A DNA stretch of 28,917 nt from a virus: positions 1 to 28,917 of IMG/VR virus record IMGVR_UViG_3300030118_001093; one strand, written 5' to 3'. The translations under genes were made by a program, and so were the position numbers. Shown here piece after piece: positions 1,153-28,214 of this stretch. Numbering within the stretch: the first letter of the stretch is position 1; every line of letters starts with the position of its first letter. The notes under the pieces were generated by a model. That model worked only from the letters and a program-made list of their open reading frames with translations. It was not told the DNA's origin and made no database searches.

Positions 1153-1800
1153 ATGAGCTTTACATTTGCACAGCTAAAAACAGCAATACAGGATTATACA
1201 GATAATTCTGAAACGACATTTGTAAGTCATCTATCAGACTTTATAAAAGCAGCAGAAGAAAGAATATTTAAGAATGTTGATTTAGAGATATTTAGAAAGA
1301 ATGTTACATCAGCATTATCAACAAGTGATAAGTTTTTAACTATACCAACAGACTATTTAGCATCTTTTTCTTTACAGATCACAACAGCAGGTAGTGAGTC
1401 TTTTCTGTTACAAAAAGATGTAAACTTCATACAAGAAGCATACGATGCTTCATCCTCCACAGCAAAGCCAAGATACTATGCACAGTTTGATGCAAATAAT
1501 TTTATCGTTGGCCCTACCCCAAACTCAAATTATGCAATAGAATTACATTACTATTACAGACCAACCAGCTTAACTGCTGGTTCTGATAGTGGTACAACAT
1601 GGTTAAGCACTAATGCCCCTTTTGCTTTATTATTCGGATCATTAGTGGATGCATATTTATTTATGAAAGGTGAGCCTGATTTGATACAACAATATGAGAA
1701 AAGATTTATGGATCAATTAACAAGACTTAAAGATTACGGAGAAGCAAGAGAAAATACTGATGCGTATTCTGAGGGTTTACCTAGAGCGCAAAGGACATAG
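1153..1800 (+). CDS. Head-tail adaptor protein (SU10-type adaptor family)
   Basis: 215 residues starting at an ATG immediately after the previous stop (TAG-ATG). It has the usual size and layout of the SU10-type adaptor family: an N-terminal helical part (FAQLKTAIQDYTDNSE, then FIKAAEERIFKNVDLEIFRK), a beta segment with TIPTDYLASFSLQI, a short hairpin ending in ELHYYYRPTSLT, and a long C-terminal helical part (APFALLFGSLVDAYLFMKGEP, then the YEKRFMDQL stretch). Adaptors form a ring under the portal and connect head to tail. The flanking virion genes agree with this. Alternatives would be another head-completion protein of the same fold class. The function comes from family resemblance and no direct interaction can be read from the sequence. 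Confidence 0.8.
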   Translation: MSFTFAQLKTAIQDYTDNSETTFVSHLSDFIKAAEERIFKNVDLEIFRKNVTSALSTSDKFLTIPTDYLASFSLQITTAGSESFLLQKDVNFIQEAYDASSSTAKPRYYAQFDANNFIVGPTPNSNYAIELHYYYRPTSLTAGSDSGTTWLSTNAPFALLFGSLVDAYLFMKGEPDLIQQYEKRFMDQLTRLKDYGEARENTDAYSEGLPRAQRT

Positions 1801-1809
1801 GAGTAGAAT

Positions 1810-2283
1810 ATGGCAACAGCAAACGCAGCAACCACCTTTTTAGAAAATAGAATTTTAAGTTTTATTTTTAAAAATAATGCGGCATCTTTTACCACACCCG
1901 GCAATGATATTTTTGTTGGGTTAGCAACAGCAGTATCAAATTTTAATGACTCAACAGGTGAGTCTGGAGATCCTGTTATAACAGAAGCAACCTTTGGTGC
2001 ATATGCAAGAAAAAGAGTCAATCATGCTGATTGGACACTAACAGCAGAATCTGCTGATACACAAACTTGCAAAAATACAAGCGCTATAGAATATCTTGAA
2101 TGCACAAGTGGCAGCAATACAATAACACATATTTTTATAGCAACTGATGAAACTGCTAGTTTAGATGTTGTTGGGTCTGGTGGTAACGTATTATTTATAG
2201 GTGCGTTAGATGCATCTAAAACAATATCAACAGGTGATATATTTAGGATTAATGCAAATAATTTAACAATAGAGTTAAAATAA
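1810..2283 (+). CDS. Gp80-like phage virion protein
   Basis: 157 residues, preceded by a GGAG ribosome binding site (in cataggagtagaat). The order of motifs, an N-terminal helix (FLENRILSFIF), a strand with DIFVGLATA, the segment EATFGAYARKRV and a C-terminal beta-rich part with IFIATDE and VLFIGALD, fits the widespread small phage proteins often labelled Gp80-like or tail fibre protein. These are believed to be structural, possibly tail- or capsid-surface components, but the exact role varies between annotations. It lies between the adaptor and the first fibre gene and overlaps the latter by TAATG. No signal peptide or catalytic motif is visible. I am fairly sure of the family and unsure of the position in the virion. 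Confidence 0.65.
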   Translation: MATANAATTFLENRILSFIFKNNAASFTTPGNDIFVGLATAVSNFNDSTGESGDPVITEATFGAYARKRVNHADWTLTAESADTQTCKNTSAIEYLECTSGSNTITHIFIATDETASLDVVGSGGNVLFIGALDASKTISTGDIFRINANNLTIELK

Positions 2284-3959
2284 TGGCTTTTGTAATAAAC
2301 GACAGAGTAAAAGAAACAACCATTACTACAGGCACTGGTACAATTTCACTAGCTGGTGCGGTTACTGGTTTTGAAACTTTTGGTACTGGTATTGGTAATT
2401 CTAATACAACATATTACGCCATAACCCTACCCGGAACCGCTGAGTTTGAGGTTGGTCTAGGTACGCTTAGTAGTGATTCTAGCACCATAGCCAGAACTAC
2501 AATTATTAGTAGCTCAAACAGTGATAGTGCAGTTGATTTTAGCGCTGGAACAAAAACAATTTTTTGTACAATACCAGCATCTAAGTCAGTCCTTTTGAGT
2601 GACGTTGGGGCTTCTACTTTAGATTTAAGCTCTGCTAATACACATGCAGGTCGATATGGGAGTTCATCAGCACCTATAGAATTTACGGTTACAGTGGCAG
2701 CTAAAACAGCGGCTCATCCTTATTATGGAGATGGCAGCTCTAATGCCTACTTTATAAATGGTGTTGAGTCACCTGCTTTAACATTACATGGTGTTGACAA
2801 TGTAACATCTAATTCAGAATATTATTACAGGTTTACTCTTAGCTCAAGTGATATGTCAAGTCATCCATTTAGACTTTATCTGGATGCAGATAAGACTACA
2901 GCATATACAACTGGAGTAACAACAACTAGTACATATTTACAAATAGCAGTAAATGAGGACACACCTAATATACTTTATTATCAATGTTCTTCTCATGGAT
3001 ACATGGGTAACTATGCAATTACATTAGGATCTAATAAAATAAATCATACTGAAGCTCTGATAAGTTTTCCAACTACAACTGGAACACTTGTAGGAACAGG
3101 TGATACAGGTTCAGTAACTAATGATATGTTAGCAGGAAGTATTGCTTCATCTAAACTAGCAGGGAGTATTGCAGATAGTAAACTTAGCACAATAAGTACG
3201 GCAGATAAGGTATCAGGTGCAGCTATTCAAATAGATGGAGCAACAGACGGAACATCTATTACTATTGCAGATTCAGATAAGTTTTTAATAGATGATGGTG
3301 GCACTACAAAATATGTAAATGCTTCTCAGGTAAACACATATACAAGTGCTAACGCTACTGATGCAGTAAATGCAGCACATGTTTTAGTAACTGATAATGA
3401 AAGCGCAAATGAAGAAAACTTAATCACATTTGTAGAGGATGCTACATCTAGCACTGGAAATGTTGGTTTAGAAATGGATGGTGATTTAACTTACAATCCA
3501 AGCACTGGTACAGTTTCAGCTACAGTTTTTAAAGGTAATATAGATGCAGTTGATGGTGACTTTGATGGTACATTAGAAGCAGATGCGATGACATTAAACG
3601 GCACAGCAATTACAACAACTGCCACCTTATCAACTGGTATATCTAATGGCAATGTATTAGTTGCAACAAGTGGTGTTGCGGATAATGACTTTTTAAGAGT
3701 TGATGGTACATCAATAGAAGGCAGAAGTGCATCTGAAGTATTAAGTGATATTGGTGGTCAAGCCTCCTTAACATTTGGTATATCAAATACTAATGCAGTT
3801 AAGATAGATTCCTCTAGTGTAGCAGATGATGAGTTTGCAAGATTTACTGCAAATGGTTTAGAAAGCAGAAGTGCCTCTGAAGTATTGTCTGATATAGGTG
3901 CAACGTCTGCTTCGGCAGCAGCAGATGAGGCAACGGCTTTAGCAATAGCGTTAGGATAA
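2283..3959 (+). CDS. Tail fibre protein with an embedded cupredoxin-like domain
   Basis: 558 residues. The first 110 residues (MAFVINDRVKETTITTGTGT, GAVTGFETF, FCTIPASKSVLLSD) are a fibre N-terminal module common in marine phages. Residues about 125-250 form a beta domain with the ligand pattern of a type 1 copper site: H194 (SHPFRLYLD) and C235-x2-H238-x2-M241 (YYQCSSHGYMGN). Next come short helical repeats (LAGSIASSKLAGSIADSKL), then beta-shaft sequence, and finally two near-identical units of about 40 residues ending in SASEVLSDIG. No cleavage or lyase motif is visible. Fibre function is supported by composition and by the surrounding adhesin genes. Copper binding is a prediction from the ligand set; the same domain could have kept the fold and the residues only as a scaffold. 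Confidence 0.8.
   Translation: MAFVINDRVKETTITTGTGTISLAGAVTGFETFGTGIGNSNTTYYAITLPGTAEFEVGLGTLSSDSSTIARTTIISSSNSDSAVDFSAGTKTIFCTIPASKSVLLSDVGASTLDLSSANTHAGRYGSSSAPIEFTVTVAAKTAAHPYYGDGSSNAYFINGVESPALTLHGVDNVTSNSEYYYRFTLSSSDMSSHPFRLYLDADKTTAYTTGVTTTSTYLQIAVNEDTPNILYYQCSSHGYMGNYAITLGSNKINHTEALISFPTTTGTLVGTGDTGSVTNDMLAGSIASSKLAGSIADSKLSTISTADKVSGAAIQIDGATDGTSITIADSDKFLIDDGGTTKYVNASQVNTYTSANATDAVNAAHVLVTDNESANEENLITFVEDATSSTGNVGLEMDGDLTYNPSTGTVSATVFKGNIDAVDGDFDGTLEADAMTLNGTAITTTATLSTGISNGNVLVATSGVADNDFLRVDGTSIEGRSASEVLSDIGGQASLTFGISNTNAVKIDSSSVADDEFARFTANGLESRSASEVLSDIGATSASAAADEATALAIALG
3636..3899 (+). repeat. Tandem repeat in the fibre C-terminus (about 48-codon period)
   Basis: Two successive units start with GISN and end with RSASEVLSDIG (40 and 41 residues). 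The nucleotide copies are offset by 141-144 bases: AGAAGTGC recurs at 3723 and 3867. The ends are almost identical while the middles differ (DNDFLRVDG against DDEFARFTA), as expected for diverging shaft repeats of a trimeric fibre. Confidence 0.75.
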
Positions 3960-6567: not shown

Positions 6568-8022
6568 ATGCCCTACATAGGAGTCAGTCCACAATTTGGA
6601 GTTAGAAGAAAGCACACTTATACTGCTATCGCTGGTCAAACCATTTTTACAGGTGCAGGTTCAGAGGGTGCAACATTAAGTTACACAGATAGTAACTTTG
6701 TTGATGTATATCAAAATGGTGTAAAGTTAGGTGATGCAGACTACACATCTACAAGTGGAACTCAAATAGTATTAACTCAAGCAGCATCAGTTGATGATCT
6801 AGTAGAAATAATAGTTTTTGATGCTTTTAGTGCTGCAGACACTGTAAGCAAAGCAGATGGTGGTACGTTTGATGGAAATGTTACTATGGGTGGTACGCTA
6901 GGAGTTACTGGTGCAGCAACTCTTTCTAGCACACTTGCTGTAACAGGTGATGCTACATTTGATACATCTACATTAAAAGTAGATGCCTCAAATAATCGTG
7001 TGGGCATAGGAACTGCTAGTCCAAGTGTCCCATTAGATATAGGAGATAATGACTCTGGAAGTGCAGGAACCACTGGCATACAAATTCAAAATTCACAAGC
7101 ATTTGCAACAGCATACGATCAAACAAACTCAAACACTTGGGCAGGTATTCAAACAGTAAACCACGATGATACATCTACTCAAACAGGCACGGGACTTATC
7201 TTTGTACATAGGTCATCTGGTTCAGGAATAGCAGCAATTCAAAGCACATCTAGTGCAAGTGATAGGGCTGATATACGATTTATTACAAGAGGTTCTGATG
7301 GCATAAAAGAAAGAATGAGAATTGCTAATAAAGGTTTTCTAAGAGCATCACCAGATAATACTGTTACTAATTCAAGATTAAGTGCTACTACTGCCCATGT
7401 GTTTCATTCACATACAGATGGTTCAATAATGATATTTGCAGAGAACACGCAATCTGATCCTTATGGTATGATGTTTGACTTCTCACAAGCATCACCTGAT
7501 GACAATACAAACTTTTTTATGAAGTTTGAAGATAGCACAGCAGAAAGAGCGCATATATATACAGATGGTGATATGAGAAACCATGATGGTACTTTTTCAC
7601 AATACTCAGATATAAGAATTAAACAAAACATTACAGATGCAAATAGTCAATGGGATGATATAAAAGCCATTAGATTTATAAACTATAAAGCTAAAGATGA
7701 TGTTAGACAGTATGGTGAGGATAAAGCTAAAATTCAACTAGGTGTCATCGCACAAGAAATGGAAAAAATAAGTCCTAAATTAATTAAGGAATATTCACCA
7801 AGTAAAGCAGATGTAAAAAGCTCATCTGAATTTGGAACTCTTTATGAAGAGGGCGATAATATTCCAGATGATAAAACTGTGGGAGATGTAAAAGAAGTAA
7901 AAGATAAGGTAAAGGGAATAGCTTATTCTATACTTTACATGAAAGCAGTAAAGGCGCTTCAAGAAGCAATGACAAGAATAGAAAAGTTAGAAGCAGAAGT
8001 AAAAGCACTAAAAGGTGAATAG
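6568..8022 (+). CDS. Tail fibre with C-terminal Peptidase_S74 intramolecular chaperone
   Basis: 484 residues. Residues 1-85 are an attachment module (VDVYQNGVKLGDADY is typical of fibre necks); 95-160 are glycine/threonine shaft repeats (GTLGVTGAATLSSTLAVTGD); 130-335 are a beta-rich adhesin region with DNRVGIGTASP-like sequence. From about residue 345 comes the S74 domain: YSDIRIKQNI with the predicted catalytic pair S347 and K352, then GVIAQEMEKISP, and a terminal coiled coil (YMKAVKALQEAMTRIEKLEA). In this family the domain trimerises the fibre and then cuts itself off at the serine. If that happens here, the mature fibre ends near residue 346. This explains why no separate chaperone gene follows, in contrast to the two upstream cassettes. 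Confidence 0.88.
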   Translation: MPYIGVSPQFGVRRKHTYTAIAGQTIFTGAGSEGATLSYTDSNFVDVYQNGVKLGDADYTSTSGTQIVLTQAASVDDLVEIIVFDAFSAADTVSKADGGTFDGNVTMGGTLGVTGAATLSSTLAVTGDATFDTSTLKVDASNNRVGIGTASPSVPLDIGDNDSGSAGTTGIQIQNSQAFATAYDQTNSNTWAGIQTVNHDDTSTQTGTGLIFVHRSSGSGIAAIQSTSSASDRADIRFITRGSDGIKERMRIANKGFLRASPDNTVTNSRLSATTAHVFHSHTDGSIMIFAENTQSDPYGMMFDFSQASPDDNTNFFMKFEDSTAERAHIYTDGDMRNHDGTFSQYSDIRIKQNITDANSQWDDIKAIRFINYKAKDDVRQYGEDKAKIQLGVIAQEMEKISPKLIKEYSPSKADVKSSSEFGTLYEEGDNIPDDKTVGDVKEVKDKVKGIAYSILYMKAVKALQEAMTRIEKLEAEVKALKGE

Positions 8023-14305: not shown

Positions 14306-14505
14306 TGACAGCGTTTGCATTGGCATGTTATCTTGGTGGAATGGCGCAGGGATCTATATATTTTAAATCAGTTGCAGATTGTATATATTATACGAAGTAT
14401 TTAAATGAACAGCAGTATAAAAATGATACAGGGCAGACTATTACATATGAATGTATATGCAAACTTGTACCACAGGTTAATGAAGAGAAAGTGAGGGTAT
14501 ATTAA
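14305..14505 (+). CDS. Small conserved protein with four cysteines
   Basis: 66 residues, TAATG-coupled on both sides. The first 18 residues (MTAFALACYLGGMAQGSI) are hydrophobic and could look like a signal peptide, but lack an N-terminal positive charge. The core motif is DCIYYTKYLN, with a second pair of cysteines in YECICKLV and an end VRVY. I recall short marine-phage proteins with the same plan (hydrophobic start, cysteine plus LN, CK-P-V, V-R-x-Y). No function is known to me. Its position before the holin makes a lysis link possible, but no spanin-type lipobox is present. Confidence 0.6.
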   Translation: MTAFALACYLGGMAQGSIYFKSVADCIYYTKYLNEQQYKNDTGQTITYECICKLVPQVNEEKVRVY

Positions 14506-14900
14506 TGTTACAAGCTCTTATAGGACCAGTTACAGGATTATTAGATAAGTTTATACCTGATGCAGATCAAAAGGCTAAGTTGGCTCACGAAATAGCTACC
14601 ATGTCTGAAAAACATGCTCAGGAGGCTTTGCTTGCTCAGTTAGAGATTAACAAAGCAGAGGCAGCGAGTGGCTCTATATTTAAAGGCGGCTGGCGCCCAG
14701 CAGTTGGGTGGGTCTGTGCGATTGCTTTTGCATATCACTTTATCGTAAAAGATCTAATTATATTTGGTGCAAGTTTTGCTGGTGCAGAATTACCAGAGCT
14801 GCCGGATTTTGATATGGGTACACTTTTAACTGTCCTTGGCGGCATGCTTGGCATCGGAGGACTCAGAACATATGAAAAGCAGAAAGGTCTTACTAAATGA
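14505..14900 (+). CDS. Holin, GTA-type three-transmembrane family
   Basis: 131 residues. Signature sequence: an amphipathic helical front (residues 1-55, with ADQKAKLAHEI and EALLAQLEINKAEA), then GGWRPAVGWVCAIAFAYHFI (61-80, first membrane segment), a second short hydrophobic stretch DLIIFGASFAG (83-93), and the C-terminal segment MGTLLTVLGGMLGIGGLRTYEK (104-125). This is the Holin_3TM pattern known from gene transfer agents and many phages. It would oligomerise in the inner membrane and let the cytoplasmic lysozyme at 15386 reach the cell wall; that lysozyme has no export signal, which agrees. Overlaps the next gene by ATGA. Confidence 0.85.
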   Translation: MLQALIGPVTGLLDKFIPDADQKAKLAHEIATMSEKHAQEALLAQLEINKAEAASGSIFKGGWRPAVGWVCAIAFAYHFIVKDLIIFGASFAGAELPELPDFDMGTLLTVLGGMLGIGGLRTYEKQKGLTK

Positions 14901-15357: not shown

Positions 15358-15375
15358 AACTTTACGTAAAGTTTT
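15356..15375. repeat. Perfect 20-base palindrome, copy A
   Basis: AAAACTTTACGTAAAGTTTT reads the same on both strands. It starts within the stop of the basic protein and fills most of the 28-base gap before the lysozyme, the widest gap in the rightward operon. Its right end touches the lysozyme GGAGG. The core TTTACGTAAA recurs at 24016, 26413 and 28232. Confidence 0.9.
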
Positions 15376-15380
15376 GGAGG
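15376..15380 (+). promoter_or_regulatory. Ribosome binding site of the lysozyme, decides its start
   Basis: GGAGG followed by five bases (TAGTT) and ATG at 15386. An in-frame TTG at 15374 would overlap this site, so it is not the start. The site directly abuts the palindrome at 15356-15375. Confidence 0.85.
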
Positions 15381-15385
15381 TAGTT

Positions 15386-15832
15386 ATGGACATTGATAAA
15401 TTAAGACAAGAATTAGAAGCCGATGAAGGGAAAGTATATGCAATTTACTTGGATCACCTTAACCTGCCTACTTTTGGGATTGGCCATTTGGTTCTTGATT
15501 CTGATCCAGAATACGGGCAGCCCGTAGGCACACCTGTAAGTGAAGAGCGTGTAAATAGCTGTTTTGAAAGTGATATTCAAGGAACTATAACAGATTGTAA
15601 AAATTTATTTGACAACTTTGATGACTTGCCAGAAGAGGCTCAATTAATTTTATCTAATATGATGTACAATTTGGGGTACACAAGACTAAGTAAATTTAGT
15701 AAACTTAGAGCAAGTATATCAATTATGGACTTTACTGAGAGCGCAAATCAGATGTATGACTCGAAATGGAGAACACAAGTGCCTAACAGAGCAGAGCGTT
15801 TAATTAATAGAATGAAAGCATTAGGAGCGTAA
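15386..15832 (+). CDS. Endolysin, T4-type lysozyme (GH24 muramidase)
   Basis: 148 residues from ATG 15386. The catalytic arrangement of GH24 is present with canonical spacing: E14, D23 and T29 (E, nine residues to D, six to T), in a segment ADEGKVYAIYLDH followed by NLPTFGIGHLV, matching T4 lysozyme E11-D20-T26. The C-terminal lobe contains LSNMMYNLGYTRLSKF and the basic SKWRTQVPNRAERLINRM typical of the family. It would cut the beta-1,4 bond of peptidoglycan. No signal peptide or SAR segment is visible, so export probably depends on the holin at 14505. Its length is close to the usual 150-165 residues. Confidence 0.93.
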   Translation: MDIDKLRQELEADEGKVYAIYLDHLNLPTFGIGHLVLDSDPEYGQPVGTPVSEERVNSCFESDIQGTITDCKNLFDNFDDLPEEAQLILSNMMYNLGYTRLSKFSKLRASISIMDFTESANQMYDSKWRTQVPNRAERLINRMKALGA

Positions 15833-19652: not shown

Positions 19653-22600
19653 ATGGGTACAATTAATGTAAAAAGTAACTTAACTGGTAAAACATACCCT
19701 ATATTAATAGCTGGTAACAGGCCCACTGCAGCAGAAGACCAATTCATACAAAATTATATTGCTAGAGAAGATGGTGTTTTATTAGAAGCTCCTGAAACAG
19801 AAGAAGAAAAAGGAAGTCTTATTGATATACCCAAAGGTATAGCAGGAGGATTTTTTCAATCTTTAGCACAAGTACCCGGTGGTATAGCTTCATTAGGCGA
19901 ATCTGTAGGTGAAAAATTAGGCTTTGATGTTGCCCCCGGTGAAAGCGATATAGGCAGAGCTGCACAAGACTTTTCTCGAGGTGCAAGTAGAGCTATAGCA
20001 GATACTTTTGATCTTAACGACAGTGCTTATAGTAAATCAGGACAAGCATTTGGTTCTTTAGCATCATTTTTTATACCCGGCACAGCAGTTGCAAAAGGTG
20101 CATCTTTATTAGGTGCTGGAGCCAAAACTGTTGCTGGGCTTGGATTTGGTACAGCGGCAACACAAGGTGCTGCGGTCCAATCGCAAGATCAAATGAATAG
20201 AATAGCTAACTTTTTAGAACGTGGCGGTATTATAGATGGTTCACAAAAAGCAGATGCTGTTTTATTAAGTGCTTTAGTTGGTACATCAGAGGCTATACCT
20301 TTTGCTGCTTTAAGCAGAAGTTTAGGCGCTGGATTAAAAATATTAAAGAAGGTTAGTAAAAAAGACAGAGATGCTGCTATTAAAACAATAGGCGGCAGAA
20401 TAAGAAGAGGTTTAACTGCTGGTGTTGCTGAGGGAACACAAGAATTACTTGCAGGCATAGCTCAAGATTTAATTGAAGAGGGCATTTACAATCCAGATGT
20501 TCAGGTTGGACAAAGTGCATACGATGACGCTGTGTATGGCGGAGGTGCGGGTACTGCTTTAAGCCTTATACTAGATAGTATAAGAGGAAGAAAACTTAAA
20601 CAACTAGATAAAAAACAACAAGAGTTAGATGATGATGCGGATGAGGCTGCTAGAGAAAACGCTAGTATGGCGCAAAATGCCAAAGATTATCTAAAAACTC
20701 AAGAAGATAAACAAATAAAACTAATAGAGGGTCCGGGCCTTGGTTTGCCTGCACCTGATGCTCCTATTATTCTTCCATCTGGTGATCCTGTTACTGATAT
20801 AGACAATCAGTCAGCAGTTGATGCCCAAGAAAATAAAAAAAGAAAAAATACTGAAGATACATTACAAGCTGCGAGAGAGGCTACAACGCCATATAATCCT
20901 GTGAAATTAGAGAGTTTGCCAGATGATGAAGCATTTAAAATACGTAAACAGAGAATAGAACTAAAAAAAGGTATACCTGTAGATGATCCAGTAACAATGC
21001 AAGAATTAGAAGAAGTTGTTGGGCCTGAAGCATCTTTAAGAGAAAAAATTTTACAAAAACCTACTTTGAATAAAGAACCATTATTAGAAGAAGTTGCAGA
21101 AGCTGAAATAGAAGCAGATAGCATTACACAAGAAACAAAAGAAAAAGTAATTAAGTTTCAAGAAAATGTACTAAAACAAAAAGTAATCAATAGAGCCGCA
21201 GTAAAAAGAGTATATCAAAAATTATTTAAAGAAAAAATGCCAGATGATATTGCTGATGGTGCTTTAGCGCAAATGCTTGGCTCTGGTGTATTGCAATATG
21301 ATGGAAAAGGTAAATATTCACCTAGGAGTCAGGTAGATATTAATTTAGATTTTATAGATCAAGCTAGTGCTTTATCAGAAAGAGCAAGACAAATTAGAGA
21401 TGCAGAAAATAAATTAAGAAAGCAACAAGAGCAACTTGTAAATGATCCTGTAAACTTTGAAACTTTAAATCAACAGTTAGATATATTACAGAGACGATAT
21501 AGTGATGTGCAGTTAGAGGCTTTTAATTTAGAAAATAAAGCAAATCAAGCTGTAGAAGGCCAACAAACAATACAAGCAAGAAGAATAGCACCATCACTTG
21601 CACCCAAAAAGGTCTTTGATCAAGCCCCTAAAACAAAAGAAACTCCAGAATATGTATTAAAGCAAAAGCGTGTGCTTGATGCTCTCAGAGCAGAGCTTAA
21701 TAGGATAGGTCTTACTGATGTTAGATTAGAGGGTAAACCTTTATTAGATCAGGTTCAGCTTACAGAAGATTTAGCCAGAGGAGAAGACATAGGTATTACT
21801 GAGGGGATACAAGAGGTATCGCCTGATGGTAAACGTATTATAGCGTTGGCTATGGAAATATACGATCCTAATATGACTGATGCTGAGTTACAGCAAAAAC
21901 TTGCTAGTGTTATGAACCATGAAGTAATACATGCATTAAAAAGTTTAAATGTATTTACAGAACAAGAATACGACATACTTACAAGAGCGGCTATGACTAG
22001 AAAGTATGTCAAGAGATCAAAGGGCAAGGATACTACTAGAAGTTACACTTATTATGAAAGAGCTAGTCATGCTTATATGCGGACCGGTATGCCAGAGGAT
22101 CAGATAATTGAAGAAGCTATTGCAGAAATGTATAGAGATTATACTGACAACAAACTTAAACTTGGCGGTAAACCTAAGAGTCTATTTGACAGAATTGTTG
22201 CATTTTTTAAGTCTATATTTGGTTCGCATGCGGATCAGGGTTTTACAGAAGCAGATCAGATATTTGAAAACATAGGCACAACAGAGATAGAAAAGCAGAT
22301 AGGCAGAAGAGATAGAAAGCCGGATGATCCTGAAACTGTTACTGAGCCACGTAGGTCACGTATAATTATTGATAGATTGCCAGATTTACACAGAGGTTCT
22401 ATAGGACCCTTACCTATAGCGCATGTTGTTAAGTCTAGATATTTACAATCGATAGGTATGCCTAATACAAGGCCGGATAGATACGTACAAGTAGACGAAG
22501 AGTTGGCTAGAAGAATAGCTAAAGATTTTGATGAAGCAAAGCATGACCCAACTAATCCAGAGGTAATACAGGCATACAAAGCTATGGCTGATGAAACATT

Positions 22601-25600
22601 CAATCAATGGCTATTTATAAAAGATACAGGAATACAAATAGAGTTTATTAAGCCAAATCAAGCAAACCCATACCCAAGAGCATCTAAAGATTTATTAGAA
22701 GATATTAGTAATAATCACATGTGGGTTTTTGCTACAGACGATGGCTTTGGTAGTGATGCTATAACAGACCAAGATATAGCAGATAACCCACTATTACAGA
22801 CAACTGGTGAGATAATTGATGGTCGTGATGCTCGGTATAATGATTTATTTAGAATAGTTCATGATTATTTTGGTCACGCATTAGAGGGGGCTACTTTTTC
22901 AGCTAGAGGCGAAGAAAATGCTTGGCAGGCACATAGCCGTATGTATACCCCGTTAGCCGCTAGAGCTATGACCACAGAAACCAGAGGGCAAAACTCATGG
23001 CTTAACTACAGTGACGCTGTTGGAGATCATAATAGAAATAGTAAAAATAAAGCTGAAGAAACAATATACGCAGATCAAAAGATAACTTTACTATCTGATT
23101 TTGTGCAAACAGAGGGATTAGCTAATAATATAGAAGGAGCAATAGATGAAAGAGCAATTCAAGAAGATGAACGATTTAGTGAAACAAGAGATGATGCAAC
23201 TGACCGAGGAAGAGATGCAAGAAGAGATGGAAGACGCAGCGTTATACGAAGCACGATTGAACCGACAAAAGAAAGGAGGGAACCTGAGTTATCTCCGCAA
23301 AAGACAGTCAAGCTAACACACTTCTCTCCTATCGAGGGCTTGCAAAGCATAGACCCAGAAAAACAAAGGTCAAATTTATTTATGCGGGGAGAAGAGAGGA
23401 GAAGAACTTTTGAGGGATATCCTGCTAGAAGCTATTTTGCTGTGAATATATCTGATCCTAATGGTTATAATCCGGAACAAAATTTAGGAGATAATATATA
23501 CGAAGTAGATGTGCCATATGAAGGTATGTATGATTGGGAAGCAGACCCAGAAAAATTCAACGATGCAGCAAATGCAGAATTAGATAAAAATAGACCTGAT
23601 ATCAAAGACCCAACTGGTCGTGTTAATTATATAACAACTGCCAAAGAAAGAATGATTAAAGAGTCTGGTGCTACAGGTTATTGGATCAATGATCCTTTCC
23701 GTGGGACCATGGCGGCTATGTTCTACGAGTTAAGAGTTCCAGAGACTTATCAAGCTAAGAAATATGATCAGGCTTACAAAGATGGCATAAACCAAAAACG
23801 TGGTGTTGATGCAAAAAGAACCATGAGATCTAGAACAAGAGCAGTGGGACAGGAACACACAGTTAGCACAAGATTTCCTACAGCAAAATCAAGAGAAGTA
23901 GATCCATCCACTAATTTATTATTTATAAATGGTGATATAATTAAAAATGATTCTAGATTATCTGAACAAGCCGCTAATTTGATTAAAGGATATAATTTAT
24001 CAGGTAACTCAAAACTTTACGTAAACTTTTCAAATGAAGAAATAATAGAAGATCACATACAGGCCATGACAAATAATATTTTATTTGTTCATGATACTTA
24101 TCCTGAACAGTTTAGAGGCAGATCTTCGTTATGGTATGATGGCGCCAGAGATATTATAGACAGGTTTTCAAAAACGTATAATTATCCTCCTGAAGTAGTG
24201 GCTGCTGCTATAGCAACCCAATCGCCACAAAAAGATTGGTACATGAATGTTTCTTTAGCAGAGCGTGTATTAGATATAAGCAGAAATCATGGCAATAAAG
24301 AATTTACACCAGAGATGATGAAAACTGCAAAAAGGATTTATGGTAAACCTGTATATAAAGAAGCATTAAATTATATTAGTAATCCTAAAAGAAACTCTAC
24401 TAATTTAGATAATTTAAATCATTCTTTACATAAAGCAATGTGGATTAGAATATTTGATGAAACATATAATGATAGAGGTCATAGAATAATAACACCTGAG
24501 GGTCAGTTTTTAGATTATGCAAGAAGAAAAGATGGAAACAAAAAACTTACAGGCTGGGGTTCAAATAAGGAAATTTCCTCAGCAGTGCAGGCTTTAGAGT
24601 TAAGAGGTGATCAATCTTTACAACAAATATCAATAATATTAGGGGATAGGCATAAAGTAAGAAGTTTTTATAACAATATGATATCACCAATGTCACCTGA
24701 TGGACACTCTACAATAGATACGCATGCTGTAGCAGTAGCTTTTTTGAAACCTTTGAGTGGCAAGTCTGTAGAAGTTGATCATAACTTTGGTGTTTATACA
24801 GGAGAGGGTAGGTCAAAAATATATGGTGTAATACCTAATTCTTCTATTACAGGCGCTAGAGGTATGTATGGATTAATTGCTGATGCATACGCTAGGGCAG
24901 CAGAGCAAAGAGGCGTATTGCCAAGACAAATGCAATCAATAACATGGGAACCAATAAGAGGATTATTTCCAGATACATTTAAAAATCAAAAACAAAATGT
25001 AGAAAAAATAAATTCAATTTGGAACTCATACATTGACGGTGGATTAACTTTAGATCAAACAAGACAGGAGATAATAAATGCTACCCCAGATGGATTTACG
25101 GAACCAAGTTGGGCAAGACCCTCTGATACAATATCTCAATTCAGTAGGGATGCCAGTTACGAGACAGAATTATCTAGACCTTATGTTTCCGGAAGGAATA
25201 CCGGAGATGACAGCGGAATTGGAAGAGATTCTACCGGAGTTCCTGAGACTAGACGCTCAAGAATAAGGGCAACACCATCTAGTGAAAGGCAGAGACAGGC
25301 ACAGCAAAATGATCGTGACATTGCACAGGCTCAGTTAAATATAAGATATAACAATTTAGCAGGTATTTTAGCTAAAGGATTAAAAGTAGTGCCTGAGTCA
25401 TTTTTATTTGGCAATACTAGAGCGCAGGCTGCACAAAAAATAGTGCAAAAATATCAAGACTCTTTTCAACCTGTTGGTGCAATGATGGATGAGTTGCGTG
25501 ATAAAGGCTACACAATAGCCGATGCTATGGACCCTTATCTAAGAGAGGTAAATTCTTCAGGTATTATAGGAGATAAATTAACTGATTTAGAAGAAACTAT

Positions 25601-28214
25601 CGTTAAGCCAACTATTGAAGAAATAAAAAAAATAAAAGTTTCAGATGAAAAATTAACAGAATTAAAAAATGCCTCTGCTAGAGCCGCTGCGCAAGAACAA
25701 GGAGAGGGATTAGTTAACAAAACTATAGACTCTTCAATAGATGTTAAGTTAGCTTTAACAGATATATATCTTTACGCTATGCATGCAAAAGAGAGAAATA
25801 TAGATATAGCAAATCGTTATGCCAGACCTAATGGTTCAGGATTATCAAAGGCTGAAGCTGATGTAATATTAGATTGGTTTGACAGTTTAGATCAGTCAAA
25901 TAAAGATATTTTTCAATTTATTAATAAACAAACTAGAAGAATAGTTAATAGCACTAATAATATTAGATATGAAAGTGGATTAATAGATAAAGCAGAATAC
26001 GATGAGCATCAAGAGGGTGCTAGGTTTAAATACTATGTGCCTTTACGTGGTGATTTAGATATTGATGTTGAGATGAAAGAAGATAGACAGAATACATTAC
26101 GTAAAACAACTAATTACTTTGGCGCTTTAGGAAGGGAGGACAAAGTAGCCAGAGGTCGTGGTATTAAGTATGCAGAAAATATTTTTGCATCAGTTATTGC
26201 GCAAAACCAAAGAGCGATAGATAGATCAGAAAGAAATAAGGTAGGTCAAAGTCTTTTAAGATTATTAAGAGGTCAAGAAGAACAGTCTGATGGTAGCACG
26301 GCTATAAACGATGCGTTGGCTACAGATTTACAGCAAAATTTTGCAGAAATAACTACTGAAGCAGAGCCTATGGACCCACATCAGATTGCAATAAAAGAGA
26401 ATGGTCAACAAGTTTACGTAAACTTTTACAGAGAAAGTATGTCCAGATCTTTCAAACATCATTACGAACCTAAAACACATCATGTTGCATTTAGAACTTT
26501 ATCTAAATTAAATAGATTTTTATCTAATGTTAATACTTCTTACAACCCAGCTTTCGTTATTCCAAACTTTGCAAAAGACTTGGAAACAGCTTTAGTAAAT
26601 ATACAACAACATGATGCAGAAGGTATTACAAAAGAGATAACTAGAGATGTTGCTGGTGCTATAAATGGAATTAGAAAAGTTTTTGGTGTTGGCGCAAATC
26701 CTTTTGGTAAAAGAACACCAGATACATCTAGTTATTGGTCACAAGAATACTTAAAATTTGTAAAAGCAGGTGGCAAGAACGCTACTAACCAAATGGGAAC
26801 TGTACAAGATCAAATGGAGAATCTTAGTAAGTTGCTAATGGATATTAGCGAAGCTAAAACATTAGGATTTAAAAGGAATGGATTTTTTAGGAAAAAAGGA
26901 AGAAGTCTTTTACAGTTTTTAGAAGACTACAATACTGTTATTGAAAATGGTGTACGTGTTGCCACGTTTACTAATTTGAAAAAAAGAGGATTTACTGATG
27001 CTAGGGCTGCTGAAGCAGCTAGGAACGTAACAGTGAACTTTGCTAAAGGTGGTGAAGATAAAGTATTTATGAACTCTTTGTATTTATTTTATAATGCATC
27101 TTTGCAAGGTAGTATGGCTATATACAATGCGGCTTATAAATCTAAAAAGGTAAGAAAAATATTAGGTGGCATAATAGTTTATGGATTTTTGCAAGATCAA
27201 CTATTGGCATTTTTAGATGATCCGGCAGAAGATGATGACCCAATAACTTATGATGAATTAAGTGATTATGATTTAGAGCATAATTTAATATTTCCATCTT
27301 TTGGTCTAATGGAGGACAAGTTTATAGCAATACCATTGGCTTATGGACTCAATATGCCATTTAATTTAGGCAGATCTCTTAGCCGCTACACACGAGGCGA
27401 ATATACTTTTGGTCAAGCAGCAAATAGTATTTTTGACACAACTATGGAAACATTATCTCCTTTTGGTGCAATAGAGAACTTTGAAACATACGTAATACCA
27501 ACTGCTTTTAAACCGGCAGTAGAAATGTATATTAATAAAAATTACAGAAACGATCCTATATACAAAGAAACGCCTATGTACTCAACAACGAATGTTCCTG
27601 ATGCTTATACACATTGGACAAATACCGGTGCTGTATCTAAATTTATAGTGCAAACTATAAACGATTTAACATTTGGAGATGAAGTAGAAAGTGGTTTGAT
27701 TGATATATCTCCGGATACAATAGAATATTTTTATGAATATGTAATAGGAGGTGCTGGAGCTTTTATAGGTAGATCAGCTAATCTAGTTTTTGATGTCATA
27801 CCGGCTATAGCTTCCGGAGACTTTGAGGGTAATTTACCAAACAGAATACCATTTATTAGAAAAGTTATAAAACAGCCGTCAGATAGAGTAGATACACAAA
27901 ATTATTTAGAAAAGAGAAAAGAGCTATACACGATATTTTCTAGAATAGATTTGGCACGAAGAAGAGGCGATCCCGAAACTATACGTAAACTTATCGCTAG
28001 GTACGATGACGAGGTACGCATATATGGTAGATTCAAGGCTTTAGATAACGCAAGAAACAGATTATTGAGACAGATCAAAGAGTTAGAACGTAATCTTCGA
28101 CTGTCAGATGATGTCAGACAAAAACTTATTAAATTACGTAGAGAACGAATACAAGAGATCATGAAAAAAGGTATTCAGTTAATGAGAAGTGTAGGCATAA
28201 GACAAACTGCATGA
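19653..28214 (+). CDS. Giant polyvalent ejection protein (zincin, HD-Y-FGH, ART-like, DUF7178-like, LPD38-like)
   Basis: 2853 residues in one unbroken frame, nearly a third of the window. Order of parts: membrane-active glycine/alanine helices (about 60-175); helical and coiled-coil region with a winged-helix-like patch (about 500-640); zincin-like motif H756-E-V-I-H760 with downstream EEAIAEM (820-826); linker R900-R-S-R; HDYFGH (1070-1075) with EENAWQAH (1087-1094); ART-like start LTHFS at H1223; linker M1391-R-S-R; SPQKDW (1524-1529) and TIDTHAV (1687-1693) of a DUF7178-like domain; linker R1867-R-S-R; LPD38-like region NPAFVIPNFAKD to VNFAKGG (about 2295-2460); hydrophobic IIVYGFLQDQLLAFL (about 2510); basic coiled C-terminus. 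Polyvalent phage proteins combine enzymes injected into the host. Two small genes are nested at 23146 and 25078. Domain names beyond zincin and LPD38 are tentative. Confidence 0.85.
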   Translation: MGTINVKSNLTGKTYPILIAGNRPTAAEDQFIQNYIAREDGVLLEAPETEEEKGSLIDIPKGIAGGFFQSLAQVPGGIASLGESVGEKLGFDVAPGESDIGRAAQDFSRGASRAIADTFDLNDSAYSKSGQAFGSLASFFIPGTAVAKGASLLGAGAKTVAGLGFGTAATQGAAVQSQDQMNRIANFLERGGIIDGSQKADAVLLSALVGTSEAIPFAALSRSLGAGLKILKKVSKKDRDAAIKTIGGRIRRGLTAGVAEGTQELLAGIAQDLIEEGIYNPDVQVGQSAYDDAVYGGGAGTALSLILDSIRGRKLKQLDKKQQELDDDADEAARENASMAQNAKDYLKTQEDKQIKLIEGPGLGLPAPDAPIILPSGDPVTDIDNQSAVDAQENKKRKNTEDTLQAAREATTPYNPVKLESLPDDEAFKIRKQRIELKKGIPVDDPVTMQELEEVVGPEASLREKILQKPTLNKEPLLEEVAEAEIEADSITQETKEKVIKFQENVLKQKVINRAAVKRVYQKLFKEKMPDDIADGALAQMLGSGVLQYDGKGKYSPRSQVDINLDFIDQASALSERARQIRDAENKLRKQQEQLVNDPVNFETLNQQLDILQRRYSDVQLEAFNLENKANQAVEGQQTIQARRIAPSLAPKKVFDQAPKTKETPEYVLKQKRVLDALRAELNRIGLTDVRLEGKPLLDQVQLTEDLARGEDIGITEGIQEVSPDGKRIIALAMEIYDPNMTDAELQQKLASVMNHEVIHALKSLNVFTEQEYDILTRAAMTRKYVKRSKGKDTTRSYTYYERASHAYMRTGMPEDQIIEEAIAEMYRDYTDNKLKLGGKPKSLFDRIVAFFKSIFGSHADQGFTEADQIFENIGTTEIEKQIGRRDRKPDDPETVTEPRRSRIIIDRLPDLHRGSIGPLPIAHVVKSRYLQSIGMPNTRPDRYVQVDEELARRIAKDFDEAKHDPTNPEVIQAYKAMADETFNQWLFIKDTGIQIEFIKPNQANPYPRASKDLLEDISNNHMWVFATDDGFGSDAITDQDIADNPLLQTTGEIIDGRDARYNDLFRIVHDYFGHALEGATFSARGEENAWQAHSRMYTPLAARAMTTETRGQNSWLNYSDAVGDHNRNSKNKAEETIYADQKITLLSDFVQTEGLANNIEGAIDERAIQEDERFSETRDDATDRGRDARRDGRRSVIRSTIEPTKERREPELSPQKTVKLTHFSPIEGLQSIDPEKQRSNLFMRGEERRRTFEGYPARSYFAVNISDPNGYNPEQNLGDNIYEVDVPYEGMYDWEADPEKFNDAANAELDKNRPDIKDPTGRVNYITTAKERMIKESGATGYWINDPFRGTMAAMFYELRVPETYQAKKYDQAYKDGINQKRGVDAKRTMRSRTRAVGQEHTVSTRFPTAKSREVDPSTNLLFINGDIIKNDSRLSEQAANLIKGYNLSGNSKLYVNFSNEEIIEDHIQAMTNNILFVHDTYPEQFRGRSSLWYDGARDIIDRFSKTYNYPPEVVAAAIATQSPQKDWYMNVSLAERVLDISRNHGNKEFTPEMMKTAKRIYGKPVYKEALNYISNPKRNSTNLDNLNHSLHKAMWIRIFDETYNDRGHRIITPEGQFLDYARRKDGNKKLTGWGSNKEISSAVQALELRGDQSLQQISIILGDRHKVRSFYNNMISPMSPDGHSTIDTHAVAVAFLKPLSGKSVEVDHNFGVYTGEGRSKIYGVIPNSSITGARGMYGLIADAYARAAEQRGVLPRQMQSITWEPIRGLFPDTFKNQKQNVEKINSIWNSYIDGGLTLDQTRQEIINATPDGFTEPSWARPSDTISQFSRDASYETELSRPYVSGRNTGDDSGIGRDSTGVPETRRSRIRATPSSERQRQAQQNDRDIAQAQLNIRYNNLAGILAKGLKVVPESFLFGNTRAQAAQKIVQKYQDSFQPVGAMMDELRDKGYTIADAMDPYLREVNSSGIIGDKLTDLEETIVKPTIEEIKKIKVSDEKLTELKNASARAAAQEQGEGLVNKTIDSSIDVKLALTDIYLYAMHAKERNIDIANRYARPNGSGLSKAEADVILDWFDSLDQSNKDIFQFINKQTRRIVNSTNNIRYESGLIDKAEYDEHQEGARFKYYVPLRGDLDIDVEMKEDRQNTLRKTTNYFGALGREDKVARGRGIKYAENIFASVIAQNQRAIDRSERNKVGQSLLRLLRGQEEQSDGSTAINDALATDLQQNFAEITTEAEPMDPHQIAIKENGQQVYVNFYRESMSRSFKHHYEPKTHHVAFRTLSKLNRFLSNVNTSYNPAFVIPNFAKDLETALVNIQQHDAEGITKEITRDVAGAINGIRKVFGVGANPFGKRTPDTSSYWSQEYLKFVKAGGKNATNQMGTVQDQMENLSKLLMDISEAKTLGFKRNGFFRKKGRSLLQFLEDYNTVIENGVRVATFTNLKKRGFTDARAAEAARNVTVNFAKGGEDKVFMNSLYLFYNASLQGSMAIYNAAYKSKKVRKILGGIIVYGFLQDQLLAFLDDPAEDDDPITYDELSDYDLEHNLIFPSFGLMEDKFIAIPLAYGLNMPFNLGRSLSRYTRGEYTFGQAANSIFDTTMETLSPFGAIENFETYVIPTAFKPAVEMYINKNYRNDPIYKETPMYSTTNVPDAYTHWTNTGAVSKFIVQTINDLTFGDEVESGLIDISPDTIEYFYEYVIGGAGAFIGRSANLVFDVIPAIASGDFEGNLPNRIPFIRKVIKQPSDRVDTQNYLEKRKELYTIFSRIDLARRRGDPETIRKLIARYDDEVRIYGRFKALDNARNRLLRQIKELERNLRLSDDVRQKLIKLRRERIQEIMKKGIQLMRSVGIRQTA
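23134..23139 (+). promoter_or_regulatory. Ribosome binding site of the nested gene at 23146
   Basis: AAGGAG six bases before the ATG at 23146, in an otherwise coding context of the giant gene. Such sites directly before +1-frame ATGs are rare inside the giant gene; I found only this one and the one at 25066. Confidence 0.7.
23146..23316 (+). CDS. Nested small gene in the +1 frame of the giant gene
   Basis: 56 residues: MKEQFKKMNDLVKQEMMQLT, then EEEMQEEMEDAALYEARLNR and QKKGGNLSYLRKRQSS, ending TAA at 23314-23316. It has an AAGGAG ribosome binding site at ideal distance and a natural-looking composition: acidic amphipathic helix, then a basic tail. In the giant frame the same DNA codes a highly charged low-complexity linker (about residues 1165-1222, including ATDRGRDARRDGRRSVIR), which lies between two folded domains. 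Overprinting of this kind usually leaves one frame ordered and the other disordered. I do not recognise a function. It is missed by length cut-offs. An accidental frame is possible, but the site and composition argue against it. Confidence 0.6.
   Translation: MKEQFKKMNDLVKQEMMQLTEEEMQEEMEDAALYEARLNRQKKGGNLSYLRKRQSS
24011..24030. repeat. TTTACGTAAA palindrome, copy B (coding)
   Basis: AAAACTTTACGTAAACTTTT inside the giant gene; the 10-base core is a perfect palindrome, and the next base on the right differs from copy A. In the giant frame it reads SKLYVNFS, close to copy C's QVYVNFY. Confidence 0.75.
25066..25070 (+). promoter_or_regulatory. Ribosome binding site of the nested gene at 25078
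   Basis: AGGAG with a seven-base spacer (ATAATAA) before ATG 25078. The giant gene needs no internal site here, so its presence supports the nested gene. Confidence 0.75.
25078..25266 (+). CDS. Nested conserved-type small phage gene in the +1 frame of the giant gene
   Basis: 62 residues with an AGGAG ribosome binding site seven bases upstream. The sequence has the pattern D-P-L-I-x-Y-L-x-S-x-G-M-P-V-T-R-x-N-Y-L-x-L, then FPEGIPE, TAELEEILPEFL, a pattern I recall from small proteins of many phages (PL..YL...GLPVTRENYL...YPEG.P..W.AE.E..LP). That makes it the more convincing of the two nested frames. In the giant frame the same bases give a serine/threonine/arginine-rich linker (residues about 1809-1871) that contains R1867-R-S-R. 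I do not know its function. Recognition is from memory only; a search is needed to settle the family. Confidence 0.75.
   Translation: MLPQMDLRNQVGQDPLIQYLNSVGMPVTRQNYLDLMFPEGIPEMTAELEEILPEFLRLDAQE
26408..26427. repeat. TTTACGTAAA palindrome, copy C (coding)
   Basis: ACAAGTTTACGTAAACTTTT inside the giant gene; AAGTTTACGTAAACTT (26410-26425) is a perfect 16-base palindrome. In frame it encodes QVYVNFY, so the match to copy B may partly reflect a shared peptide. Confidence 0.75.

What the first reader, a model, noticed from the sequence alone, without database searches (positions are those of the whole stretch)
2658..3035. Cupredoxin-like domain in a tail fibre with a full set of copper ligands
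H194, C235, H238 and M241 form H...C-x2-H-x2-M, the ligand set of type 1 copper proteins, in a beta domain of about 120 residues. Similar domains occur in other marine phage fibres, but metal binding has, as far as I know, not been shown. It may stabilise the fibre or sense metal at the cell surface.
Basis: partly seen in the sequence, partly recalled or inferred. Interest (0 to 1): 0.5.

Follow-up and report, generated by a model that had tools for sequence, protein, structure and literature searches.

The report
Copper-protein-like module in phage fibre
A protein of a marine virus's tail carries a swappable domain that looks like a blue-copper protein and keeps all four residues that would hold a copper ion, a pattern shared by many ocean phages and some surface proteins of marine microbes, although copper binding itself has not been tested.

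Summary
Residues 126-251 of the 558-aa protein at 2283-3959 form a beta domain with H194, C235, H238 and M241, an amicyanin-type ligand set. The predicted structure (pLDDT 87.6) matches cupredoxins: 50 of 50 listed VIA-align rows (best Z 8.9) and 43 of 50 listed Foldseek rows, though Foldseek's best E is only 2.1e-3. Among 85 relatives under 82% identity only six columns are invariant: the four ligands, F184 and G242. In a scan fished without any ligand residue, 74 of 77 complete distinct domains keep all four. The domain behaves as a cassette: of 57 relatives with this N-terminus not cut at the 3' end, 10 have it and 47 lack it; five without it share 91-94% of residues 369-480. It also occurs in other tail and baseplate proteins of cyanophages and in lipoprotein-like proteins of marine bacteria and archaea. 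Best reading: an accessory type-1-copper-like cupredoxin module on the virion. Copper binding is likely but unproven; its role (metal-dependent contact with the host surface) is inferred. 'Stabilises the fibre' is disfavoured. The paper searches showed no earlier report, in an open-licence library only.

The parts
2283..3959 (+). 558-aa fibre-like protein that carries the domain
   Evidence: ORF list and translation; PHROG 30742 tail fiber E 1.1e-27, matched over residues 127-400
2283..2627 (+). N-terminal domain (residues 1-115), shared with fibres that lack the cupredoxin module
2658..3035 (+). cupredoxin-like domain, residues 126-251
   Evidence: AF2 model pLDDT 87.6, pTM 0.82; fold matches; family alignment A2
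2862..2864 (+). codon of H194, first proposed copper ligand, just before a beta strand
   Evidence: invariant in 85 of 85; strand position
2985..2987 (+). codon of C235, proposed thiolate ligand at the end of a strand
   Evidence: invariant in 85 of 85; strand position
2994..2996 (+). codon of H238, second histidine ligand in the loop
   Evidence: invariant in 85 of 85
3003..3005 (+). codon of M241, proposed axial ligand
   Evidence: invariant in 85 of 85
3387..3956 (+). C-terminal block (about residues 369-558), closely shared with several fibres that lack the cupredoxin module
   Evidence: L275, L283, L310, L320 and L322 share 102-105 of 112 residues over 369-480; they lack 48 residues further on
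1153..1800 (+). neighbour: SU10-type adaptor protein
   Evidence: PF24175 E 2.4e-25
1810..2283 (+). neighbour: podophage GP4 fibre I (gp80)-like protein
   Evidence: PF23140 E 2.4e-21
6568..8022 (+). neighbour: fibre with S74 intramolecular chaperone
   Evidence: PF13884 E 1.9e-11

Best explanation
Residues 126-251 are a cupredoxin domain of a virion/cell-surface subfamily with an intact type-1-like site (H194, C235, H238, M241; C-x2-H-x2-M loop). It is an accessory cassette set between a conserved N-terminal domain and a C-terminal block shared with other fibres, in a fibre-like protein of what looks like a short-tailed marine phage. The apo domain would fold in the host cytoplasm and take up one copper ion after lysis. 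The metal-loaded loop end would then act at the host surface as a metal-dependent contact or docking element. Shown: sequence, ligand conservation, predicted fold, cassette behaviour, occurrence in several virion protein types and in lipoprotein-like proteins. Inferred: copper as the metal (about 0.65), uptake after release, and a role in surface contact (about 0.4).
For: Ligands exact and the only invariant columns besides F184 and G242 in 85 relatives. Retrieval without ligand residues: 74 of 77 complete distinct domains have all four. AF2 model pLDDT 87.6 with H194 just before a strand, C235 at a strand end, and H238 and M241 in the next loop. VIA-align: 50 of 50 listed rows are copper nitrite reductases, laccases or rusticyanin, best Z 8.9, rmsd 3.7, 97 aligned; the protein's own N-terminal domain, run the same way, has no row at Z 5 or more. 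Global hhalign lays all four residues on amicyanin's H53, C92, H95, M98; score 12.6 against at most 11.66 in 60 column shuffles. A divergent cyanophage relative (L334) finds 11 PDB sequences at E up to 1, all plastocyanins or rusticyanins, E 0.021-0.73. Lipoprotein-like relatives in Marinifilum and others. Cassette behaviour.
Against: No metal measurement exists. The window domain itself has no significant match to a Pfam cupredoxin family or to a PDB sequence. Foldseek's best PDB E is 2.1e-3 with TM over the query at most 0.47 in the listed rows; only 5 of 997 VIA chains reach Z 8, and the tool warns that unmatched models typically have a best Z of 7-8. hhalign's own probability is low: 30.5% for a local match of 24 columns around C, H and M and 1.25% for the global alignment. 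The top PDB hit of profile A2 is not a cupredoxin (8a14, E 0.0099; the alignment runs over what looks like an expression tag). The residue after H194 is Pro, where the ten canonical cupredoxins aligned here have Asn or Thr. Some family members lost the site. No experiment ties the domain to host contact.
Confidence: 0.6

Rival explanations
1. Cupredoxin fold kept only as a generic beta-sandwich adhesion or spacer domain, metal-free in the virion; the four residues are conserved for packing of the loop end.
For: Family members without the site exist and are still kept in phage proteins: gp7 first copy of P-HM2 and MED4-213, L336, L338, L339, L347. Beta-sandwich domains are common in phage fibres (recalled).
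Against: 74 of 77 complete domains fished without ligand residues keep all four chemically specific residues; 220 of 228 uncut stretches in the ligand-masked search. In the cases of loss seen, C and the second H go together.
Confidence: 0.2
2. A redox or copper-sensing function: the type-1 site exchanges electrons with the host envelope or responds to copper to trigger fibre movement.
For: Same ligand set as electron-transfer cupredoxins; an Actinomarina relative lies near a cytochrome b561 and directly before an FAD/NAD oxidoreductase gene (L226).
Against: No redox partner recognised among the window proteins scanned; 47 of 57 relatives of this fibre do without the domain.
Confidence: 0.1
3. 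The site binds another soft metal, Cu(I) carried as cargo, Zn or Ag, rather than working as a type 1 site.
For: Pro after the first His in 74 of the 77 domains where that His was found removes the backbone NH that in canonical sites hydrogen-bonds the Cys sulfur (recalled), so the site may be perturbed.
Against: Laccase type 1 sites also have Pro after this His (recalled); exact C-x2-H-x2-M spacing as in amicyanin.
Confidence: 0.12
4. Unrelated beta-sandwich; the ligand set is a coincidence.
For: No single-sequence match above a Pfam cut-off for the window domain; Foldseek TM over the query at most 0.47; low hhalign probabilities.
Against: Invariance of exactly these residues, fold lists dominated by cupredoxins, ligand-to-ligand profile alignment above all 60 shuffles.
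Confidence: 0.05

Closest known systems
Amicyanin (Paracoccus) and plastocyanin/pseudoazurin-type cupredoxins (PF00127)
   Same: Order and spacing of H...C-x2-H-x2-M; global profile alignment puts ligand on ligand.
   Different: Those are free periplasmic or lumenal proteins (recalled); here the domain is inside a fibre protein, has Pro after the first His, and the window domain has no hit to PF00127.
Multicopper oxidase / copper nitrite reductase cupredoxin domains
   Same: Best structural neighbours (2dv6 Z 8.9; small laccases Z about 7.4-8.1); 2 of 85 relatives hit PF00394, best E 1.6e-4; His-Pro at the first ligand as in laccases (recalled).
   Different: A single domain, without the neighbouring domain and type 2/3 copper sites of those enzymes (recalled).
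PF25489 At5g54830-like domain
   Same: 27 of 85 relatives match at E up to 0.1, best 2.4e-7; the Marinifilum lipoprotein-like protein L186 passes the curated cut-off (29.6 against 27 bits).
   Different: The window domain is below the cut-off (16.5 bits, E 0.0084).
PHROG 30742 tail fiber proteins
   Same: E 3.8e-33 over the domain; fibres of P-TIM68 and P-SSM2 match the model structurally.
   Different: The family's label names no metal; protein length and neighbours differ in the cyanophages seen.
Iron-binding HxH tail fibres (T4 gp37; Alteromonas phage R22Y, PMC11705849, abstract and passages seen)
   Same: Metal site proposed on a marine phage fibre.
   Different: HxH pairs of a trimeric fibre and iron there; a single-chain H/C/H/M site in a cupredoxin domain here.
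Cyanophage plastocyanin (petE)
   Same: Phage-encoded cupredoxin; 401 phage records match a plastocyanin bait.
   Different: A separate small protein annotated as plastocyanin, not part of a larger virion protein.

Membership tests
Cupredoxin fold | Greek-key beta sandwich of about eight strands | tested here: met
   AF2 pLDDT 87.6, pTM 0.82, nine strands of three or more residues; 50 of 50 listed VIA rows and 43 of 50 listed Foldseek rows are cupredoxin-fold proteins (two of the 43 are coagulation factor V, whose fold is recalled); the other 7 Foldseek rows are one protein, SO1698. Predicted, not solved; topology not inspected in coordinates.
Type 1 copper proteins | His, Cys, His and usually an axial Met, the last three in one loop | tested here: met
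   H194, C235, H238, M241; conserved; aligned to amicyanin ligands
Type 1 copper proteins | Ligands within bonding distance in the folded protein | not testable with these tools
Type 1 copper proteins | Copper bound, intense band near 600 nm | not testable with these tools
   Needs purified protein
Plastocyanin/azurin family (PF00127) | Match above the curated cut-off | tested here: inconclusive
   No hit for the window domain; 5 of 85 relatives hit weakly, best E 0.016; cyanophage relatives L333 and L337 E 0.0038 and 0.0033, below cut-off
Plastocyanin/amicyanin proper | Asn or Thr directly after the first ligand His, as in the ten proteins of A3 | tested here: not met
   Pro195 here; Asn or Thr in 10 of 10 of A3; Pro in 74 of the 77 phage domains where the first His was found. 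So not filed in that family.
PF25489 At5g54830-like | Match above the curated cut-off of 27 bits | tested here: not met
   Window domain 16.5 bits; the cellular relative L186 is above it at 29.6
PHROG 30742 (tail fiber) | Profile match | tested here: met
   E 3.8e-33 for the domain with flanks, 1.1e-27 for the protein, starting at residue 127

The most novel reading that the evidence does not exclude
The fibre module descends from, and still imitates, copper-carrying surface lipoproteins of marine microbes: the copper-loaded loop docks on the host partner that normally meets such a lipoprotein, a copper version of the 'Ferrojan horse', and phages gain or lose it by cassette exchange as hosts change.
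Probability: 0.13. Interest if true: 0.85.

Novelty: new variant of a known kind. Interest (0 to 1): 0.58.

Why it matters
If copper is bound, many ocean phages carry a transition-metal site on tail proteins that is under strong purifying selection. That would add copper to the iron-in-fibres idea, offer a testable factor in how phages of marine bacteria recognise hosts, and give a first lead on lipoprotein-like marine proteins whose function is not stated in the data seen here. Even without copper, it defines a widespread virion module for which the libraries searched here have no name of its own.

Tried and rejected
Stabilisation of the fibre as the main role: disfavoured, because 47 of 57 relatives with the same N-terminus (not cut at the 3' end) lack the domain.

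All-or-none loss of the ligands: I first read the data this way, but the ligand-free scan found two near-identical domains that keep the first H and M while losing C and the second H (L369, L385), so I dropped the strict claim.

Sequence search of the PDB with the domain alone gave nothing significant; profile A1 gave a copper nitrite reductase (E 0.27), a galactose mutarotase-related protein (0.44) and pseudoazurin (0.45); profile A2 gave six hits, three of them cupredoxins (E 0.023, 0.025, 0.89), and its top hit (8a14, E 0.0099) aligns over what looks like an expression tag. NCBIfam gave only weak hits, none for the window domain. Searching the window for PF25489 found nothing, nor did the 14 control genomes, so that call says nothing. 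The N-terminal domain has no PDB match with Foldseek E under 0.1 and no VIA row at Z 5 or more. In six IMG/VR records behind my loci the profile found one place each.

Literature, all ten searches: 'cupredoxin'+'phage'+'tail fiber' 0 papers; 'plastocyanin-like domain'+'tail fiber'+'marine' 0; 'cupredoxin'+'cyanophage' 1, on Borgs, not opened; 'cupredoxin'+'phage' inside words 178, of which I saw 40 titles and abstract starts, none about a phage virion domain. Four broader searches and two on metals in fibres showed nothing on it in the rows listed. I saw passages of PMC8115048 (a viral nitrite reductase), the abstract and passages of PMC11705849, and two passages of PMC3037559 (no proteome evidence for these proteins among them). 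Only open-licence PMC papers are held, so absence is weak evidence.

Full report
WHAT IS THERE. The window is a virus record of 28,917 bases. ORF 2283-3959 (+) encodes 558 aa. The gene follows an SU10-type adaptor (PF24175, E 2.4e-25) and a podophage GP4 fibre I-like protein (PF23140, E 2.4e-21), and a protein with an S74 chaperone domain lies downstream. The whole protein matches PHROG 30742 'tail fiber', but only from residue 127 on, so that name rests largely on the domain itself; the neighbourhood supports a fibre independently.

CONSERVATION. A first viral scan gave 80 loci (the best 80 of 118 confirmed); with the window's own locus they gave 61 distinct domains, and 61 of 61 have all four residues. 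From 234 loci (three scans, the window and ten phage records) I kept 85 domains under 82% identity, leaving out the phage-record loci L082-L091. The only invariant columns are F184, H194, C235, H238, M241 and G242. The scans used patterns that include ligand residues among others, which biases this count. Three checks follow. (a) 9 of the 85 rows match none of the ligand-bearing patterns, and all 9 keep the set (first His read by eye). (b) Of 24 domain stretches in genome loci that do not match the C/H/M pattern of that scan, 23 have C..H..M; the exception is a second copy in L230. Of these, 73 have H and C-x2-H-x2-M; L352 has all four with C-x4-H-x2-M; L375 is cut by the locus end; L347 lacks all; L369 and L385, near-identical, keep the first H and M but have Ser for Cys and Asp for the second His. 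That is 74 of 77 complete domains.

LOSS OF THE SITE. A search with ligand columns masked over all loci then held, cupredoxin controls left out, found 232 distinct stretches. My script marked 215 as complete; 5 more were missed by its pattern for the first His and are complete on reading. Of the other 12, 4 are cut by locus ends and 8 lack the site; these 8 come from 6 places, since the gp7 copies of P-HM2 and MED4-213 are each held twice. Some intact copies may likewise be held in two overlapping loci, with slightly different ends. In gp7 of P-HM2 and MED4-213 a copy without the site lies next to an intact copy.

FOLD. An AlphaFold2 model from the 85-row alignment has mean pLDDT 87.6 and pTM 0.82 and nine strands; H194 lies just before a strand, C235 ends a strand, and H238 and M241 lie in the loop to the last strand. 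VIA-align lists copper nitrite reductase (2dv6, Z 8.9, rmsd 3.7, 97 aligned), small laccases (Z about 7.4-8.1) and rusticyanin (2cal, Z 7.9); all 50 rows listed are of these kinds, but only 5 of 997 chains reach Z 8, and the tool warns that models without a clear match typically have a best Z of 7-8. By Foldseek, 43 of 50 listed rows are cupredoxin-fold proteins; the other 7 are one protein, SO1698; the best E is 2.1e-3 and TM over the query at most 0.47, so the match is clear in kind but moderate in strength. As a control, the protein's own N-terminal domain (pLDDT 84.6) has no Foldseek hit under E 0.1 and no VIA row at Z 5 or more. Against viral models the domain matches fibres of P-TIM68 and P-SSM2 and 'beta-sandwich proteins' of Pithovirus LCPAC302 and Marseillevirus LCMAC202 (E 3.9e-8 and 1.9e-7).

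LINK TO KNOWN CUPREDOXINS. The window domain alone has no significant Pfam or PDB sequence hit. Against a profile of ten cupredoxins from annotated records, global hhalign lays the four residues on amicyanin's H53, C92, H95 and M98, score 12.6 against mean 2.1 and maximum 11.66 in 60 column shuffles; local score 25.4 against mean 10.7 and maximum 23.0. hhalign's own probabilities are low: 30.5% for the local match of 24 columns, 1.25% for the global one. Of 85 relatives, 27 match PF25489 (best 2.4e-7), 5 PF00127 (best 0.016) and 2 PF00394 (best 1.6e-4) at E up to 0.1. A divergent copy in cyanophage MED4-213 (L334) finds 11 PDB sequences at E up to 1, all plastocyanins or rusticyanins, best E 0.021. 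Profile A2 against the PDB finds a multicopper oxidase (0.023) and pseudoazurin (0.025), but its first hit, 8a14, is not a cupredoxin. The residue after the first His is Pro in 74 of the 77 phage domains where that His was found, against Asn or Thr in the ten canonical proteins; laccases also have Pro there (recalled).

A CASSETTE. Among 57 ORFs not cut at the 3' end of the locus, 10 carry the domain and 47 do not; of 23 cut ORFs, 4 carry it. In an alignment of ten of these, five without the domain (L275, L283, L310, L320, L322) share 92-96 of 112 N-terminal residues and 102-105 of 112 residues over 369-480 with the window, and have a shorter unrelated module in the middle; L246, which has the domain, shares 109 of 112 N-terminal residues but only 33 of 130 aligned residues over 369-558. 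So the pieces recombine in both directions. In 76 of 161 viral loci with the domain this N-terminus was found; in the other 85 it was not, though some of those loci are cut short. In eight phage genomes picked because they had a hit there are 24 places, 1 to 5 per genome; of the 16 beyond the main copies, 11 have all four residues (two with C-x2-H-x3-M) and 5 have none. Annotated carriers of the domain include tail fibre, tail spike, gp7 baseplate wedge and virion structural proteins.

CELLULAR RELATIVES. Sixty-three loci in bacterial and archaeal genomes. Some look like phage DNA in single-cell genomes (Prochlorococcus, SAR11; my inference). Others are small proteins with a signal-peptide-like start and a lipobox-like Cys, with the domain towards the C-terminus: Marinifilum, SAR86, other gammaproteobacteria, marine group II-type archaea, Actinomarina (signal peptides judged by eye). 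In Actinomarina L226 a cytochrome b561 gene lies nearby and an FAD/NAD oxidoreductase gene directly follows. The Marinifilum protein L186 passes the PF25489 cut-off.

HOW IT LIKELY WORKS. Most likely an accessory cupredoxin module on a fibre-like protein of the virion that binds one copper ion after release and makes a metal-dependent contact with the host surface. The ligand set, its conservation, the predicted fold and the cassette behaviour are shown by the calls above; copper, the timing of uptake and the contact role are inferred. Stabilising the fibre is disfavoured since 47 of 57 relatives of this fibre lack the domain.

NOVELTY. Cupredoxins, phage plastocyanin and iron in phage fibres (PMC11705849, passages seen) are known. 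A cupredoxin module inside virion proteins was not found in the open-licence papers searched, which is limited evidence. I rate it a new variant of a known kind.

Noticed in passing
window 19653-28214: 2853-aa ORF with LPD38 (PF18857, E 1.3e-29) and DUF7178 (E 6.3e-23): a large polyvalent-type protein; it also holds an HEVIHAL zinc-protease-like motif (motif read by eye).
   Followed up: partly
L268, L271, L275, L283, L294, L310, L320, L322 (fibre middle): In place of the cupredoxin module these fibres carry a shorter unrelated module with a conserved YCE..N.H...L...HS-type stretch: a second interchangeable cassette of unknown function.
   Followed up: no
gp7 of P-HM2 (L089) and MED4-213 (L088): Two tandem copies of the domain in a giant baseplate wedge protein, the first without any ligand and the second intact.
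   Followed up: partly
L369 and L385: Near-identical phage domains that keep the first His and Met but have Ser for Cys and Asp for the second His: a natural site variant.
   Followed up: no
BFVD entries A0A481Z6J5, A0A481Z7Q7, A0A481YY19: 'Beta-sandwich proteins' of Pithovirus LCPAC302 and LCPAC304 and Marseillevirus LCMAC202 match the model at E 3.9e-8 to 4.2e-7; the two Pithovirus ones are 124 and 133 aa, so little more than the domain.
   Followed up: no
L226, L214 (Actinomarina contigs): Lipoprotein-like relative near a cytochrome b561 and directly before an FAD/NAD oxidoreductase in L226; L214 has similar-looking neighbours that were not scanned: possible redox partners.
   Followed up: partly
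L173, L196, L197, L199, L211, L227: Phage-structural-looking proteins with the domain on SAR11 contigs, L173 on one of 275 kb: possible prophages or co-captured phage DNA.
   Followed up: no
window 14505-14900: GTA_holin_3TM family protein (PF11351, E 5.5e-22) and a phage lysozyme at 15374-15832 (PF00959, E 2.1e-6): likely lysis pair.
   Followed up: no
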